Source: an uncultured bacterium
GTDB taxonomy: Bacteria > Bacteroidota > Bacteroidia > Bacteroidales > CAIWKO01
Assembly (NCBI GenBank): GCA_903862465.1
Contig: CAIOYH010000040.1
Span: 1 to 57,040, forward strand
Reading direction: 5' to 3'
Length of the DNA: 57,040 nt
Shown: one piece after another, positions 15,030 through 55,354 of the stretch
Layout of the letters: each line of letters starts with the position of its first letter
Numbering within the stretch: the stretch's first letter is position 1
Program-made: the position numbers and the translations under genes
The notes under the pieces: generated by a model
The model's input: only the letters and a program-made list of their open reading frames with translations
Told to the model about the DNA's origin: nothing
Databases searched by the model: none

Positions 15030-16241
15030 CTATGACACTTTAATCTTCCCTTTATATAGCTTCGCCTTCCCAAAGCGCAACCCCATCCGAAAACCTATTT
15101 GCCCTGACATGGAAAAATTGCCTCCTTTATACTTATGAGGTGGGTCATAAATCTCTGTATGACTTCCTTCACTATACTGTGTTTTATAAATACTTCGGGT
15201 CACACTACCTCCTCTATACATAAAACCAAATGACATAAAGGCATCGAAAACAAACTTCTTTATCTGAGGCGTCTGCACGCCAAAAATGACATTACATTGA
15301 ATGGAAGCACTCCGTTCCGATTGAAAAGCAAACGATATATTCCTATAATAATCTGAACCGTTTTCATTCACATACGACCATCTATCATCATAATAATAGT
15401 AACGAAAGCATAGCTGCGGACCCACATACAAGTGTTTCTTTTTAGAAAGAAAAAACTTCGGAATGGCTTCCAAAGTGAAACCTTTGCGGTTATAAAAGGA
15501 ATGGTCGAAAATATAGCGACTACCTGACCACAAACTTCCTTCCTTCATGGCGGACAAAACAGTAGCAAAATCATAGCCATCACGATTTTTAGCGTACAAA
15601 ACTCCCACACCAATATCCAAACAGAGATTTCTTTTGATAGGCAATTCAAAAATCAGGTTGATTTCGTTGGTGAGGTCGCGCACTATGTTTGTTTTTATGC
15701 CATAATGCACAGGGCAGGTATCGAGTGCGGCAAATATTGCGTTTCTGCGCTGTTCTTTCTTTTCAAGAATAGAGTCATATTGCTGACTGGTAATATGTGG
15801 AGCAAACGGCTTATTTGGTGGAGGATTTGAAATGGCTAACAGCCTGTCGGCATGCTTTTCATAATCTTCAAAAGACATGAATATAAATTCGCCCGTACTG
15901 TCGGGTACGACTGTAAAAGACGTTTTGGAGAAAGAGGGAAAAGGACCTGATTGCAACATTTTGGATAGCCCAATAATGTCGGAGGGATAAACCTTGAACG
16001 TATCGAGCATCAAAAAATCGGAATTCATGGCTTGAACAACGGATTTATGCTTGACATTATGCTTATCGACCCATTGAATTCTACCTTTTTTAATGTAAGC
16101 AAAATCGTGCTCGTTTGTTTTGCCTCTGCTCTTATAGGTTGTATGAAATACTAAGACCGTATCCCAATTATTCCAATTTTGGGCAAAAGAGAGATCACAC
16201 ATACCTGAAATGAACAGCAGACCGATTAGATACTTTTTCAT
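15030..16241 (-). CDS. Hypothetical secreted/outer-membrane protein
   Basis: Signal peptide (MKKYLIGLLFISGMCDLSFAQ), C-terminal beta-barrel-like alternation; start trimmed. Confidence 0.55.
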   Translation of the reverse strand: MKKYLIGLLFISGMCDLSFAQNWNNWDTVLVFHTTYKSRGKTNEHDFAYIKKGRIQWVDKHNVKHKSVVQAMNSDFLMLDTFKVYPSDIIGLSKMLQSGPFPSFSKTSFTVVPDSTGEFIFMSFEDYEKHADRLLAISNPPPNKPFAPHITSQQYDSILEKKEQRRNAIFAALDTCPVHYGIKTNIVRDLTNEINLIFELPIKRNLCLDIGVGVLYAKNRDGYDFATVLSAMKEGSLWSGSRYIFDHSFYNRKGFTLEAIPKFFLSKKKHLYVGPQLCFRYYYYDDRWSYVNENGSDYYRNISFAFQSERSASIQCNVIFGVQTPQIKKFVFDAFMSFGFMYRGGSVTRSIYKTQYSEGSHTEIYDPPHKYKGGNFSMSGQIGFRMGLRFGKAKLYKGKIKVS

Positions 16242-16428
16242 ATACATACTTTTTAGAAATGACGATTCAATTATTAGCTTCCGAATTGCGCTGAGCAACA
16301 TCTTTGAAGCCAACCGATTGTTTCTTGAATTATAGCAACAAAATCTGCATCAAAGGTACATTATTTTTTCGATTATTATTATTTTTATGCTTCAATATTT
16401 ATAGAAGTTTTAATTAAAAGAAAGAATC

Positions 16429-16848
16429 ATGAAAGAGAAAGTAAAAAAGAAAGAAAAAGTAACAACAAAAGAGAGAATAGAAATGAACGAAAAAGGAATC
16501 TTGATTTTCACAGGTAAGAAAAATAAAGAGCTTGACCACCGCCACCTAGTGCATGTGGAAGCCGACGACCACACCATGTTTGTGAGCAGCAAATACCAAC
16601 CCGAAATAAAAAAGGTGTTTGTCCTCAACCATCTGGAGAAGTTGCTCCCGGAGGATATGTATATGCGCACGCATAAAGCGCATTTGGTAAACTTAAGTTG
16701 TGTTGTTGCTGATACTATGAAAGCATTTGGCAATAAAGGTTTGCTGGTCAATTTGAAATATACCAAGCGCCAAGCCATCGTTTCTGAGCGCAAAGTGCCG
16801 ATTTTTCTTGAAAAGCTAGAAGCTTATAAACAAGGCAATTGCAAATGA
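16429..16848 (+). CDS. LytTR-type DNA-binding domain protein, no receiver domain
   Basis: LVHVEADDHTMFVSS..., FVLNHLEKLLPEDMYMRTHKAHLVNLSCV, LKYTKRQAIVSERKVPIFLEKLEAY: LytTR-like core. Confidence 0.85.
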   Translation: MKEKVKKKEKVTTKERIEMNEKGILIFTGKKNKELDHRHLVHVEADDHTMFVSSKYQPEIKKVFVLNHLEKLLPEDMYMRTHKAHLVNLSCVVADTMKAFGNKGLLVNLKYTKRQAIVSERKVPIFLEKLEAYKQGNCK

Positions 16849-16950
16849 TGAAAAAAATCTTTGCGCGTTCACGAACAAAATCGCTTATCATATTTATTTT
16901 TGATTATAATTTCGCGATGTTAAACAATCATGCTGTTCTTTGTTATTTTG
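16847..16950 (+). repeat. Leader repeat, copy A (homologous to 42845..42948 on minus strand)
   Basis: 29 bp identical AAAAAAATCTTTGCGCGTTCACGAACAAA, then diverged homology ending ACAATCATGCTGTTCTTTGTT. Confidence 0.85.
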
Positions 16951-16991
16951 AAATTAGTGAAAGAAAATTATGAACGTATCTTTTTTGTGAA

Positions 16992-17211
16992 CTTATCATC
17001 ACTGCGAACAAATTAGTTATTGCTGCAAGTGAACAAACTGTTGCTGCTGGGAAATAAGCTGTTGCTGCCGGAGAATAAGCTGATGTTGCTAGCGTAAAAA
17101 CAGGAGTTGCCAGCGTAAAAACTGTAGCTGCCAGCGTAAAAACTGTAGCTGCTAGCGTAAAAACTGTAGCTGCTAGAGAAAAAACTCTTGTTGCCAGAGA
17201 AAAAGCAATTA
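16992..17211 (+). repeat. 21-bp tandem repeat array A (~9-10 units)
   Basis: Unit anchors at 17020, 17041, 17062, 17086, 17107, 17128, 17149, 17170, 17191; core unit ccagcgtaaaaactgtagctg. Confidence 0.9.
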
Positions 17212-17323
17212 CTTACAAATTAGAAGTACGAATATTTTTTTCACATTTTAAAGTAACGAGTCAAAATTGAGAAGTAAAATTATAAAATAACTAAATAAGC
17301 AATAACCATTTAAATGTATCATT

Positions 17324-18055
17324 ATGCCAACAAAAAATTTTATCCCGGGTCCTTATGGAAAGTTCAATGACTTCCAAGCCACATTAATTGCCTTTATTCT
17401 AGCCAATATGGCAGGATGGGGTCTGCCGACGGCGGCTACAGCCGAATTCACATTATTGTCCAACACCGTGGGCAAAAAGAAGCTGCGCTGGGAGGCTATT
17501 TGGGCAATTATTCTTACCAACGTATATACACATCCGCAAGAAGTGGAATTGAAGGCAGCACGCAGAGACTATGAATTCGGACGTAGGGATGATCCAACCG
17601 ATACCAGCATACGTTTGTTTTTAACTCGCTACATTCGCAACAACCCAAGAGTTTCGGATGAACAAAAGGCTGCAATGGGACTTATCGTTCCCGATTTAGT
17701 AAAAACCCTAAGTACGCATGTGTTCGTTGGCAACAACTTGGTAGGTACTGTTAGTTGGGGCGAACATTTGGTGCATCATAATGAAGTTTTGGTTCCGGGT
17801 CAAGAAAGCAAAGCTAAACCTGATGGCGTTGAAAACATTCATGTGTTTATCGCTTTTACGGCTGCTAGCGTGAAGGAAGTTCCCGCATTAGACAAATTTG
17901 TTTATGATGGAATGGTGAAGAATGGAAAGTACGACCGTGAGTTCACTATCGAACAAGAAGCCATGCGTGCGTGGTATTACGTTAAAATGATGATGAAAGG
18001 CAAAAATGGAAAATATAGCCTGCCGAGCGAAATTTGGCAATCGGTGATCATGTAG
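17324..18055 (+). CDS. Conserved hypothetical protein
   Basis: 243 aa, MPTKNFIPGPYGKFNDFQATLIAFILANMAGWGLP; no family assigned. Confidence 0.75.
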   Translation: MPTKNFIPGPYGKFNDFQATLIAFILANMAGWGLPTAATAEFTLLSNTVGKKKLRWEAIWAIILTNVYTHPQEVELKAARRDYEFGRRDDPTDTSIRLFLTRYIRNNPRVSDEQKAAMGLIVPDLVKTLSTHVFVGNNLVGTVSWGEHLVHHNEVLVPGQESKAKPDGVENIHVFIAFTAASVKEVPALDKFVYDGMVKNGKYDREFTIEQEAMRAWYYVKMMMKGKNGKYSLPSEIWQSVIM

Positions 18056-42614: not shown

Positions 42615-42831
42615 AAACATTTCTTGCTCCCGCTGCAAAGTTTCCTGCTTGCGCTTGAAAGTTTCCTGCTTGCCTTGAAAGTTTCCTGCTTGCGCTTGAA
42701 AGTTTCCTGCTTGCGCTTGAAGGTTTCCTGCTTGCGCTGCAAAGTTTCATGCTTGCGCTTGAAGGTTTCCTGCTTGCGCTGCAAAGTTTCATGCTTGCGC
42801 TTGAATGTTTCCTGCTTGCGCTAGATTTCAA
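42615..42831 (-). repeat. 21-bp tandem repeat array B (10 units)
   Basis: Anchors at 42623, 42644, 42665, 42685, 42706, 42727, 42748, 42769, 42790, 42811 (one 20-bp step); minus unit cagcgcaagcaggaaactttg. Confidence 0.92.
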
Positions 42832-42844
42832 CCTTTTGAAGTTT

Positions 42845-42948
42845 TTATCAAACAAAGAACGTCATAATTGTTTCATGGTGCGCAATGATTTTCAAAAACA
42901 ATTTCAACAATGGATTTGTTCGTGAACGCGCAAAGATTTTTTTATCAT
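42845..42948 (-). repeat. Leader repeat, copy B
   Basis: Reverse complement GAATGATAAAAAAATCTTTGCGCGTTCACGAACAAA...ACAATTATGACGTTCTTTGTT matches 16847..16950. Confidence 0.85.
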
Positions 42949-43066
42949 TCGCATTTATCTCTTTTATAGTCTTCTAATCTTTTGAAAAAATCAGTACTTT
43001 GCGGTTGTAAACAATAGCATGGCTTTTGGAGTACTTCAACCTGCGTATTCATTTGTTGGATAAATG
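42946..43066 (-). pseudogene. Decayed 3' remnant of a LytTR-domain gene
   Basis: Minus-strand LKYSKSHAIVYNRKVLIF, then (frameshift) KRLEDYKRDKCE* vs LKYTKRQAIVSERKVPIF-EKLEAYKQGNCK* at 16429..16848. Confidence 0.8.
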
Positions 43067-44164: not shown

Positions 44165-46069
44165 ATGAAAAGTTCCGGCAAAGCACCGAAAAAGTCCAGC
44201 GAAAAGCGCACTCCCACCCGTAAACCATCCGAAAGAAAAAGTTTCGACAAACCGAAGTTTACTAAAACTTCCGACAGAAAGTCTGCATCATCAGGCGATG
44301 AATCTGAATATAAAAAACCGCGCTATGCTGATAGGAACGCTTCGGATGACACCAAATCATCGGATAGAAAGCCTTATAAGTCGCGCACCACGGATCGTGA
44401 TGATTCGGATAAGCCTCGCAGACGTTATGATGATAACGGGAGTCGCGATGAGAAAAAACCTTACGAAAGGAAACCCTATGCTTCACGTGATACCGACAAA
44501 AGCAGTTCGGATAGACCGCGAGAACGATATAACGATAATAGAAATCGTGACGATAACAAAACCTCAGATTGGAAACCTTATAATACAAAGGATACAGAAA
44601 GAAGCGATTCGGACAGACCGCGCGGACGTTATGATGATAAACGCGGTAGGGATGACAGCAAGTCTTACGAAAGGAAACCTTACAAATCAAGAGATACAGA
44701 CCGAAGCGATTCGGATAGACCTCGCGATCGCTATGATGATAGACGCGGTAGGGATGATAGCAAGTCTTCTGAAAGGAAACCTTATAAATCAAGAGATACG
44801 GAGAGAAACGATTCCGACAGACCTCGCGACCGTTATGATGACAAACGCGGTAGGGACGACAGCAAGTTTTCTGACAGGAAACCTTACAAATCAAGAGATA
44901 CAGACCGAAGCGATTCCGACAGACCTCGCGACCGTTATGATGATAGACGCGGCAGGGATGACAGCAAGTTTTCTGATAGGAAGCCTTATAAATCACGTGA
45001 TACGGAACGCGGTGGCTCTGATAGACCGATTGAACGTTATACGGATAAGCGGAATCGTGATGATGACAAATACGCGGATAAAAAACCGTATAAGTCGAGG
45101 GATGATGAGCAAAACGACTCGAACCGTCCTATCGAAAAATATGTGGATAGAAGAACTCAGGAGGAAAAAGATCGCATATCGTCAAAACCATATAAACGTT
45201 TTGAGGATGACAAAAACGCTTCTGAGGGTGATAAACGCAAACGTAATCGAATCGTGGAGGAAAAAACCTATCAGGCTAAAGCTCGCGAACGCAGAGACCT
45301 TGTGGATATCTTGGTGAAAGATAACACCTATTCTAAGCGTCCTTCGTTTAAAAAGTCAGCAGATGGCGGCATTCGTCTGAATAAGTTTATCTCAAATGCG
45401 GGTGTTTGTTCGCGCAGAGAAGCCGACACTTTGATTGAAACAGGGGCAATAACTATAAATGGCAAAATTATCACGCAATTGGGCACGAAAGTGATGCCGA
45501 ATGACGAGGTGCGTTTAGGCGATCAGCTGTTGCGCGGCGAGCAATTGCAATATCTGTTGTTGAACAAACCAAAAGGATATATCACCACAACGGATGATCC
45601 CCAAGAGCGCAAGACCGTGATGTTGATTGTGGAAAAGGCATGTAACGAACGCATTTATCCTGTCGGCAGGTTGGATAAAAACACTACGGGTTTGTTGTTG
45701 TTTACCAATGATGGCGACATGGCGAAAAAGCTTACGCATCCGAAACATCGGATTGAAAAAGTGTATCATGTGGAGTTGGATAGGGTTTTGACTAGCACAG
45801 ATATGCAAAAAATAGCGGACGGTGTGGAGCTTGAAGATGGATTTATTCAAGTGGACGGCATAGCGTATGGCGACACGAAAAAGGAATGTGGCATCGAACT
45901 TCATTCCGGCAAGAATCGCATTGTCAGACGCATCTTCGAAAGCTTGGGTTATGATGTGGTGAAGCTCGATAGGGTGGTGTTTGCAGGATTAACCAAGAAA
46001 GAATTGCCACGCGGCAAGTTTAGATTCTTAAGTGAAGCCGAAGTAAACATCTTGCGAAGGATACAGTAA
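44165..46069 (+). CDS. RluB/RsuA-family rRNA pseudouridine synthase with long repetitive N-terminal extension
   Basis: C-terminal S4 (IRLNKFISNAGVCSRREADTLI) and PUS (YPVGRLDKNTTGLLLFTNDGD) domains; N-terminal ~8 x 34-aa repeats. Confidence 0.92.
   Translation: MKSSGKAPKKSSEKRTPTRKPSERKSFDKPKFTKTSDRKSASSGDESEYKKPRYADRNASDDTKSSDRKPYKSRTTDRDDSDKPRRRYDDNGSRDEKKPYERKPYASRDTDKSSSDRPRERYNDNRNRDDNKTSDWKPYNTKDTERSDSDRPRGRYDDKRGRDDSKSYERKPYKSRDTDRSDSDRPRDRYDDRRGRDDSKSSERKPYKSRDTERNDSDRPRDRYDDKRGRDDSKFSDRKPYKSRDTDRSDSDRPRDRYDDRRGRDDSKFSDRKPYKSRDTERGGSDRPIERYTDKRNRDDDKYADKKPYKSRDDEQNDSNRPIEKYVDRRTQEEKDRISSKPYKRFEDDKNASEGDKRKRNRIVEEKTYQAKARERRDLVDILVKDNTYSKRPSFKKSADGGIRLNKFISNAGVCSRREADTLIETGAITINGKIITQLGTKVMPNDEVRLGDQLLRGEQLQYLLLNKPKGYITTTDDPQERKTVMLIVEKACNERIYPVGRLDKNTTGLLLFTNDGDMAKKLTHPKHRIEKVYHVELDRVLTSTDMQKIADGVELEDGFIQVDGIAYGDTKKECGIELHSGKNRIVRRIFESLGYDVVKLDRVVFAGLTKKELPRGKFRFLSEAEVNILRRIQ
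44388..45210 (+). repeat. Coding 102-bp tandem repeats (~8 units)
   Basis: 34-aa unit DRSDSDRPRDRYDDRRGRDDSKFSDRKPYKSRDT. Confidence 0.92.
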
Positions 46070-46232: not shown

Positions 46233-46490
46233 ATTTACAGTATGTATAATCACATGATTATAGTAATTGTAATTTTTTACAATATATGGAAACACATGAT
46301 TATAGCTATTGTAAATTTTTACACTAGATATAATCACATGATTATGGTTATTGTTTTTTTTTACACTATATAAAATCACATGATTATGGTTATTGTTTTT
46401 TTTTACACTATATATAAACACATGATTATAGCTATTGTTTTTTTTTACTATAGATAAAAACACATGATTATAGCATCAGTAAATTTTTTC
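46233..46490. repeat. 42-bp phased repeat array D (6 units)
   Basis: cacatgatta at 46251, 46293, 46335, 46377, 46419, 46461, exactly 42 bp apart; dyad TATAATCA-CA-TGATTATA in unit 1. Confidence 0.95.
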
Positions 46491-46667
46491 TATAGTGCAA
46501 AACACTTTTTTGATATTAATGTTTATTGGGGGGAGGTAAAAAACATGTGTTATGGGAGTATAAAATCAAAAAAATATAATCAAAAATCAATCTTTCTTAG
46601 TGTATTTGGTTCCTAGTGTTTTATTGCCTAGGTGCAACAATCATCCTGACGTTGGGCACTTTAAATA

Positions 46668-53285: not shown

Positions 53286-53714
53286 ATGACACAAATGAAC
53301 GAGGATACAATTAATTATAAGGATGATTATATGCCTCTATCAGAAGAGGAAGAATATATTGGAAAAGAGATAGTAAATGCAGCATATATTGTGCATAAAC
53401 GTCTTGGACCGGGGCTTTTGGAAAAGGTATATGAAGTCTGTTTTTGCCATGTGTTGAATGAGCAAGGTTTGTTTGTAGAGCGTCAAGTAAAAGTTCCAAT
53501 TGTATTCGACGATTTTGTGTTTGATGAAGGATTACGTCTTGATGTTTTGATAAACGATTTGGTTATTTGTGAGCTTAAAGCAGTTGAAAATACTAATCCT
53601 GTTTGGGCTGCACAATTATTAAGTTACTTAAAACTAACAGGCAGACGTCTTGGATATATTATTAATTTTAATGTTCCATTAATTAAAAACGGTATAAAAA
53701 GAATGATAGTTTAA
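53286..53714 (+). CDS. GxxExxY family protein (PD-(D/E)XK nuclease-like)
   Basis: IGKEIVNAAYIVHKRLGPGLLEKVYEVCFCHVLNEQGLFVERQVKVPIVFDDFVFDEGLRLDVLINDLVICELKAVE; GPGLLEKVY is the GxxExxY signature. Confidence 0.93.
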   Translation: MTQMNEDTINYKDDYMPLSEEEEYIGKEIVNAAYIVHKRLGPGLLEKVYEVCFCHVLNEQGLFVERQVKVPIVFDDFVFDEGLRLDVLINDLVICELKAVENTNPVWAAQLLSYLKLTGRRLGYIINFNVPLIKNGIKRMIV

Positions 53715-54163
53715 ACTTTGTGTTTCTTTGAGTCATAGTGTCTTTGTGGTAAAAATAGGGAGACAAACTTAAAAGAGAAAAATAGCGTTATAAAAAATGG
53801 TCGTATAAACTTTGTGTTTCTTTGTGTCTTAGTGTCTTTGTGGCAAGAATAGGGAGAAAAACTTTATCGAAGATAATAACGTTATAAAAAAATGGTTGTA
53901 TAAACTTTGTGTTTCTTTGTGTCTTAGTGTCTTTGTGGTAAGATGAAAGAAATAAACTTAATAGAAGAAAATAATGTTATAAAAAAATGGTAGTATAAAC
54001 TTTGTGTTTCTTTGTGTCTTAGTGTCTTTGTGGTAAAAATAGGGAGACAAACTTAAAAGAGGAAAAAAGCGTTATAAAAAATGGTTGTATAAACTTTTTG
54101 TTTCTTTGAGTCTTAGTGTCTTTGTGGCAAGATTTGAGAAACATACTTAATAGAAAAGAAAAT
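53712..54163 (+). repeat. ~95-bp tandem repeat array, 5 copies, between GxxExxY gene and sucB
   Basis: Copies start at 53712, 53806, 53901, 53996, 54090 (steps 94, 95, 95, 94): taaactttgtgtttctttgtgtcttagtgtctttgtggtaa...gttataaaaaaatggttgta. Confidence 0.95.
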
Positions 54164-55354
54164 ATGATATTAGAAATTAAAGTTCCAAGTCCGGGGGAGT
54201 CCATTACTCAGGTACAGATTGCCTCTTGGTTGGTGGGAGATGGTGATTTTGTGGAAAAGAACACCGAGATAGCCGAAATTGAATCCGACAAAGCCACTTT
54301 AGCTATCAGTGCGCCCGAGTCGGGGGTGATTTCTATCACCAATAAAGAGGGCGATACGGTTGCCGTTGGGCAAGTTATCGCTACGCTCAACAGTGATTCT
54401 GAAAGACCGCTCGATGTGGAAACTGCTCCGAAAGTTCAAGTTGTTACACCTGCTGAAACTGCTGCAAAAACCCTTCCTATTTCGCCTTTGGCAAAGAAAA
54501 TCATCACAGAAAATCAGGTGGATGTGGCTGCATTGAGCGATACCTTTCAAGGGACACGCATCAGCACCAAAGAAGTGGTCAGTTTTTTATCTAAGAAGGA
54601 CGAAAAACAAGCTGTGAAGCAGGACCGTGAAGGTGTCACGCGCATTAAGATGTCGCCCTTACGCCAAAAGCTTGCCGAACGATTGGTGGCTGTGAAGTTG
54701 AATACCGCCATGCTCACCACCTTTAACGAAGTGAACATGAAAGAGATTCTCAATCTGAAAGCAAAATATAATGAGTCATTCAAATCGAAGTATGGATATT
54801 CTTTGAGTTTCGTTTCTTTCTTTGCAAAGGCTGCAGCTATTGCCATGAGTGAGTTTCCTGTGGTAAATGCCATGATAGAGGGGGATGAAATCGTGTATCA
54901 TGAATTTGTTGACATTAATATTGCTGTCAGCAGTCCGAAGGGTTTGATCACGCCTTTAATTCGTGATGTACATAAGAAGAGTGTTCTCGAATTGGAGTTG
55001 ACCATCAAAGAAATGGGCGCCAAAGCTGCCAAGAATCGCATCGCGCTCGACGATTTGGCTTTGGGGACTTTCACCATCACCAACGGCGGTGTGTTTGGTT
55101 CGATGATGTCCACGCCTATCATCAATCCACCTCAATCTGCCATTTTAGGTATGCACAACATATTGCAACGTCCGATGGCAGTCAATGGGCTTGTGGAGAT
55201 ATTGCCCATGATGTATATCGCTCTCAGCTACGACCATCGTTTGATTGACGGGCGCGAGTCGGTTGGATTCATCGTGAGACTCATCAAACTATTGGAACAA
55301 CCTATAGAAAGCGGCTTGACGACCTACGAAGACTTCGATACGTTTTTGAGTTAG
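54164..55354 (+). CDS. sucB: Dihydrolipoyllysine succinyltransferase (2-oxoglutarate dehydrogenase E2)
   Basis: [48 protein letters not shown]; catalytic [15 protein letters not shown]; start trimmed. Confidence 0.96.

What the first reader, a model, noticed from the sequence alone, without database searches (positions are those of the whole stretch)
16429..17215. LytTR gene + ~100-bp leader + 21-bp tandem array forms a module that occurs twice in the window
Right after the LytTR-only gene's stop (16846-16848) comes a leader containing AAAAAAATCTTTGCGCGTTCACGAACAAA, then ~40 bp later a 21-bp direct-repeat array (16992-17211). The same order and orientation recur on the minus strand at 43066..42615: LytTR 3' remnant, leader with the identical 29-mer and an ACAAT(C/T)ATG..GTTCTTTGTT end, then a 21-bp array. 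The unit sequences have diverged (GCTAGCGTAAAAACTGTAGCT vs GCAAGCAGGAAACTTTCAAGC) but still look related. A transcription-factor domain, fixed leader and rapidly diverging array moving as one unit is not a module I recognise.
Basis: seen in the sequence. Interest (0 to 1): 0.82.

Follow-up and report, generated by a model that had tools for sequence, protein, structure and literature searches.

The report
Private 21-bp arrays before FN3 genes
The repeat array next to the LytTR gene is one of about twenty in this genome, each lying just upstream of a member of an undescribed protein family and each made of its own 21-base unit; the arrays are probably transcribed but not translated, and nothing like this pairing turned up in the databases or open papers searched.

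Summary
The constant partner of the 21-bp array is the gene downstream (window 17324-18055), a ~243-aa protein with a helical N-terminal half and a fibronectin-III C-terminal half, which I call FIP; it matches no Pfam, NCBIfam, PHROG, PADLOC or PDB sequence family. This genome has 22 FIP homologues, and all 19 with readable upstream DNA carry a 21-bp-period array. Across 18 Bacteroidota genomes 56 of 68 FIP loci do, against 0 of 61 and 0 of 63 control regions. Unit sequences are private to each locus; only the 21-bp period is shared. The arrays look non-coding. About a quarter follow a sense-strand boxA-like motif, the same element found in 16S rRNA leaders of related genomes, which places those arrays inside an antiterminated transcript. 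A LytTR-only gene sits upstream in a minority of loci; other small DNA-binding regulators occur in its place. The 29-mer leader is genus-specific. The second window copy is a decayed module: LytTR remnant, leader, array, no FIP. A sister species with the orthologous LytTR (88% identical) starts a different array. Most likely: regulator, boxA leader, array-bearing 5' leader RNA, FIP. What the array does is inferred, not shown.

The parts
16429..16848 (+). LytTR-only regulator gene (139 aa); optional part of the module
   Evidence: PF04397 E 6.8e-8; orthologue in sister species 122/139 identical; diverged LytTR at the same place in congener locus L016
16851..16879 (+). genus-specific 29-mer after the LytTR stop (holds GTTC-ac-GAAC); candidate LytTR operator (inferred)
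   Evidence: identical in window copy 2 and in sister species G002; core recognisable as CCGCGTTCACGG in L016 and CCGTGTTTACGA in L024
16895..16902 (+). TATTTTTG, match to the Bacteroidota -7 element TAnnTTTG; putative promoter
   Evidence: consensus match only, no good -33 element
16934..16943 (+). TGTTCTTTGT, boxA-like antitermination element
   Evidence: GTTCTTTG is enriched on the sense strand before arrays (10 found, 0.4 expected, 0 antisense) and is present in 16S rRNA leaders of three related genomes
17020..17204 (+). 21-bp tandem array, ~8.8 units, non-coding
   Evidence: stops in all three frames; no copy elsewhere in the genome
17324..18055 (+). FIP gene: 243 aa, helical N-terminal domain plus FN3-fold C-terminal domain, no known family
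   Evidence: AF2 pLDDT 85.8; FN3 hits in PDB fold search; 22 homologues in this genome
42637..42822 (-). 21-bp array of second copy, ~8.9 units
   Evidence: matches the array start of the sister species' orthologous locus 20/21
42915..42943 (-). identical 29-mer of second copy
42945..43040 (-). LytTR 3' remnant (frameshifted) of second copy; no FIP gene follows, next gene is a thioredoxin/AhpC-TSA protein at 42437-41040

Best explanation
The array belongs to a multi-copy gene family of Bacteroidota in which each FIP gene carries, ending a median 103 bp before its start codon, a private tandem array of exactly 21-bp units. The most likely working order in the window: the small LytTR protein acts at a site next to its own stop codon (the 29-mer) on a promoter behind it; RNA polymerase picks up an antitermination complex at boxA, reads through the ~185-nt untranslated array and on into FIP. 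The array is thus part of a long 5' leader RNA. Its fixed 21-unit length with free sequence suggests an evenly spaced, repeated binding platform for a locus-specific partner, possibly FIP itself, that sets or senses FIP production. Shown: the FIP-array pairing, its statistics, the non-coding look of the arrays, boxA enrichment, array turnover. Inferred: promoter position, the 29-mer as operator, transcription of the array, and any partner that binds it.
For: 56 of 68 FIP loci have a best lag of 21 or 42 within 600 bp upstream; 0/61 downstream and 0/63 far-upstream controls; own genome 19/19. Excess autocorrelation 0.63 at lag 21 and about 0.02 at 20 and 22. Units unrelated between loci. No 3-base periodicity of variation and no frame continuous with FIP among the 56 arrays. 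GTTCTTTG boxA: 10 sense, 0 antisense, 0.4 expected, all within about 150 bp before arrays, same element in 16S leaders. boxA lets RNA polymerase pass long untranslated RNA and raises expression of CRISPR arrays when 58-90 bp before the first repeat (PMC7862264, PMC4807359). LytTR-only genes upstream in about a dozen loci, those re-scanned all over the Pfam cut-off. Unit absent elsewhere in the genome.
Against: A recognisable boxA precedes only 14 of 56 arrays. No RNA data. Self-complementarity of arrays is equal on both strands, which gives no sign of sense-strand RNA structure. TAnnTTTG promoters are only moderately enriched and some lie between array and FIP. More arrays have an open sense frame (38) than expected (28), though antisense is the same. 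No partner for the array was identified.
Confidence: 0.5

Rival explanations
1. The array is a DNA operator array: sites phased by two helical turns (21 bp) bound cooperatively by the adjacent LytTR protein or another regulator to control FIP.
For: LytTR direct repeats are typically 9 bp separated by 12 bp, i.e. 21 bp apart (PMC6193735; the 9-bp length is from general knowledge of the family); LytTR is the commonest neighbour; short motifs phased at about 21 bp follow the LytTR gene in L067-L070 and L120 (read by eye); self-complementarity equal on both strands and modestly above chance.
Against: Units show no conserved 9-bp core against a free spacer (3/41 at p<0.05). The same LytTR (88% identical) begins a different array in the sister species. 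Most loci lack a LytTR gene yet keep the 21-bp period. Where boxA is present the array lies inside the transcript.
Confidence: 0.25
2. One reading: LytTR + leader + array is one mobile or duplicating module.
For: Second, degraded copy 26 kb away with the identical 29-mer.
Against: Only two leader copies in the genome; LytTR absent at most array loci; FIP not found on phages, plasmids or viral contigs; FIP and upstream parts are exchanged or diverge separately.
Confidence: 0.05
3. The array is coding: 7-residue repeats translated upstream of, or fused to, FIP.
For: 21 bp = 7 codons; in two loci (L076, L078) the FIP frame runs into the repeats.
Against: Several arrays, the window's included, have stops in all frames; variation shows no codon periodicity and none of the 56 arrays is in an unbroken frame with FIP.
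Confidence: 0.05
4. The array is a passive minisatellite tolerated in FIP leaders, or a length-variable switch for FIP expression without a specific ligand.
For: Unit sequence unconstrained between loci; arrays turn over quickly.
Against: A fixed period of 21 in unrelated sequences across families, with nothing at 20 or 22, is not expected of neutral minisatellites.
Confidence: 0.15

Closest known systems
CRISPR arrays with a boxA-bearing leader
   Same: boxA some tens of bp before the first repeat of a non-coding array of regular units (PMC7862264)
   Different: no spacers, no Cas genes among the neighbouring ORFs examined, units near-identical within an array and private to the locus, no second match of the window unit in its own genome
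LytTR Regulatory Systems and LytTR-only regulators
   Same: small LytTR protein; direct repeats with 21-bp spacing (PMC6193735)
   Different: no LytTR-system membrane partner seen; array has about 10 units without a 9-bp core; LytTR is optional
rRNA leader antitermination (NusB/S10 boxA)
   Same: identical GTTCTTTG element on the transcript
   Different: followed by a 21-nt repeat array and an mRNA, not rRNA
Phased minisatellites / iterons
   Same: tandem units with a helical-turn-compatible period
   Different: iterons share a sequence bound by one Rep protein (general knowledge); here every locus has its own unit and no Rep gene was seen

Membership tests
LytTR family regulator (gene 16429-16848) | LytTR DNA-binding domain over the curated cut-off | tested here: met
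   PF04397 33.1 bits against cut-off 22.6
LytTR Regulatory System (PMC6193735) | adjacent inhibitory membrane protein gene | tested here: inconclusive
   neighbours are an ORF without a Pfam family on the minus strand (15030-16313) and FIP; no membrane partner recognised, transmembrane segments not predicted
LytTR operator array | 9-bp conserved motif with ~12-bp free spacer per unit | tested here: not met
   no conserved 9-bp block in units, 3/41 at p<0.05
CRISPR array | unique spacers between repeats and Cas genes | tested here: not met
   contiguous 21-bp units with no spacers; no Cas family among the window neighbours scanned or the families listed for upstream ORFs (first 25 only)
boxA antitermination element | conserved motif on the sense strand of untranslated transcripts, shared with the rRNA leader of the same group | tested here: met
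   NusB/S10 binding itself not testable
Fibronectin type III domain (FIP C-terminal half) | FN3 beta-sandwich fold | tested here: met
   AF2 model with FN3 domains as top PDB matches, TMt mostly 0.5-0.68 for single FN3 domains over ~105 columns, best E about 1e-3; no Pfam FN3 sequence match
Mobile element / transposon module | transposase or recombinase, multiple dispersed copies, carriage on phages or plasmids | tested here: not met
   transposase genes were not searched for specifically

The most novel reading that the evidence does not exclude
Each FIP protein and its own 21-nt repeat RNA (or DNA) form a cognate, locus-private pair: a new class of boxA-led repeat-RNA/protein system, present in about twenty independent versions in one genome, in which the repeat unit is the identity tag and only its 21-nt length is fixed.
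Probability: 0.3. Interest if true: 0.9.

Novelty: categorically new. Interest (0 to 1): 0.75.

Why it matters
A gene family without a name, in up to about twenty copies per genome, is tied almost one-to-one to non-coding arrays that share a length but no sequence. Such a strict length rule without a sequence rule means something measures 21 bases, and none of the systems compared here explains it. If the arrays are antiterminated leader RNAs, this is a new use of boxA; if they are phased DNA sites, it is an unusual operator architecture. Either can be tested with ordinary transcript mapping.

Tried and rejected
Leader 29-mer as a wide marker: outside the genus the order search (393 genomes) gave only scattered 2-mismatch hits; of these, two were read and have no array. 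An exact 18-mer scan of 84,980 species gave only the sister species, one planctomycete and two Bacteroidales loci in an unrelated coding context. Coding arrays: rejected. Shared unit sequence: rejected. Dyad symmetry as the general rule: only 10/56 arrays. 9-bp LytTR core in units: rejected. Target sites for the window unit elsewhere in the genome: none. Rfam: no match. Copy-number change between two related loci (L063/L065): the length difference is an unrelated insertion. Literature: nine searches of open-access full text found nothing on this pairing; subscription journals were not searchable, so prior description cannot be excluded.

Full report
Observation. The LytTR ORF (16429-16848), the 29-mer after its stop (16851-16879), and the 21-bp arrays (17020-17204 plus strand; 42822-42637 minus strand) are all present. 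The leader core occurs only at these two places in the 4.2-Mb genome. The second copy keeps only the last ~30 codons of LytTR, frameshifted, and has no FIP gene behind its array; the next gene is a thioredoxin-like protein. The two units are not similar beyond chance.

What recurs. A congener (G003, locus L016) has a LytTR gene 31% identical to the window's, then a leader, a 21-bp array of different unit, and then a 245-aa protein 45% identical to the window's next gene, 17324-18055. That downstream gene, called FIP here after its N-terminal motif, proved to be the constant. With profiles built from it, its homologues were found in about 4% of Bacteroidia genomes sampled (14 of 395) and in 4 of 257 phylum-wide, often in several copies. 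This genome has 22 at E <= 1e-3.

Statistics. For 68 FIP loci with readable upstream DNA, the strongest internal repeat in the 600 bp before the start codon has period 21 (42 loci) or 42 (14 loci); one has period 14 and 11 have none over threshold, most of which still have 21 or 42 as their best lag. Downstream (61) and far-upstream (63) control stretches never gave 21 or 42. In this genome it is 19 of 19. Median array length is 212 bp and median distance to the ATG 103 bp. Mean excess autocorrelation is 0.63 at lag 21 and about 0.02 at lags 20 and 22. Units are unrelated between loci: 1596 array pairs look like column-shuffled controls. The threshold of 28 was set by me after seeing the first loci; the controls use the same threshold.

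Nature of the array. It looks non-coding: several arrays, the window's included, have stops in all frames, variation has no codon periodicity, and no array is in unbroken frame with FIP. An open sense frame is somewhat more frequent than expected (38 against 28), but equally so antisense (39). It is modestly enriched in inverted repeats, equally on both strands. It has no 9-bp core with free spacer. The window's unit occurs nowhere else in the genome.

Leader. The most shared 8-mer before arrays is GTTCTTTG, found 10 times on the sense strand within about 150 bp, never antisense, 0.4 expected. The same GTTCTTTGA stands in the 16S rRNA leaders of three related genomes, so it is boxA by position and sequence. 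boxA is known to let polymerase cross long untranslated RNA and to raise expression of CRISPR arrays (PMC4807359, PMC7862264). In those loci the array should therefore lie inside the transcript. A Bacteroidota -7-like element lies between the 29-mer and boxA in the window (16895). Transcription itself was not tested.

Regulators. LytTR-only genes precede the array region in about a dozen loci; the ten re-scanned one by one, other than the window's, are all above the Pfam cut-off. Not all of those loci have a strong array: L063, L067, L070 and L072 are among the eleven below threshold. LuxR-type, HTH_3, Crp-like or no small regulator stand there in others. After several of these LytTR genes there are short motifs at about 21-bp spacing, separate from the main array (read by eye, not tested statistically); these look like ordinary LytTR direct repeats, whose two halves are usually separated by 12 bp (PMC6193735).

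Turnover. Between the window locus and locus C189 of the same genome FIP is 82% identical in DNA and homology begins exactly at the start codon; LytTR, leader and array are unrelated. Between the window and sister species G002, the upstream gene, LytTR and 29-mer are 88% identical, and identity collapses just after the 29-mer; the G002 array start matches the window's second copy 20/21 but the adjacent window array only 12/21. G002's contig ends about one and a half units into the array, so this swap rests on ~30 bases plus its leader.

FIP. AlphaFold gives a helical N-terminal domain and an FN3-like sandwich (pLDDT 85.8, pTM 0.54); the FN3 half is supported by the PDB fold search, and no N-terminal match was noted. 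No family in Pfam, NCBIfam, PHROGs, PADLOC or PDB sequences. No N-terminal signal peptide is evident by eye; localisation was not tested.

Reading. Best supported: regulator, promoter, boxA, transcribed 21-nt repeat leader, FIP. The function of the array remains inferred; the leader-RNA reading is put at 0.5, phased DNA operator at 0.25. The FIP-array pairing itself is put at above 0.95.

Noticed in passing
window 46234-46505: A further array of 42-bp period (CACATGATTATAG core) with no FIP or LytTR gene beside it; period is twice 21.
   Followed up: partly
window 44571-45007: 102-bp repeats inside the ORF 44165-46069.
   Followed up: no
window 53688-54164: 95-bp tandem repeats of about five units, partly overlapping the start of ORF 54116-55354.
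   Followed up: no
L076 and L078: FIP open frames that run upstream into the 21-bp repeats, giving 7-residue repeats at the N terminus.
   Followed up: partly
L063 and L065: Two near-identical loci in different genomes differ by an insertion of about 100 bp between array region and FIP.
   Followed up: partly
L067-L070, L120: Short motifs at about 21-bp spacing directly after the LytTR gene, separate from the main array; likely LytTR sites.
   Followed up: partly
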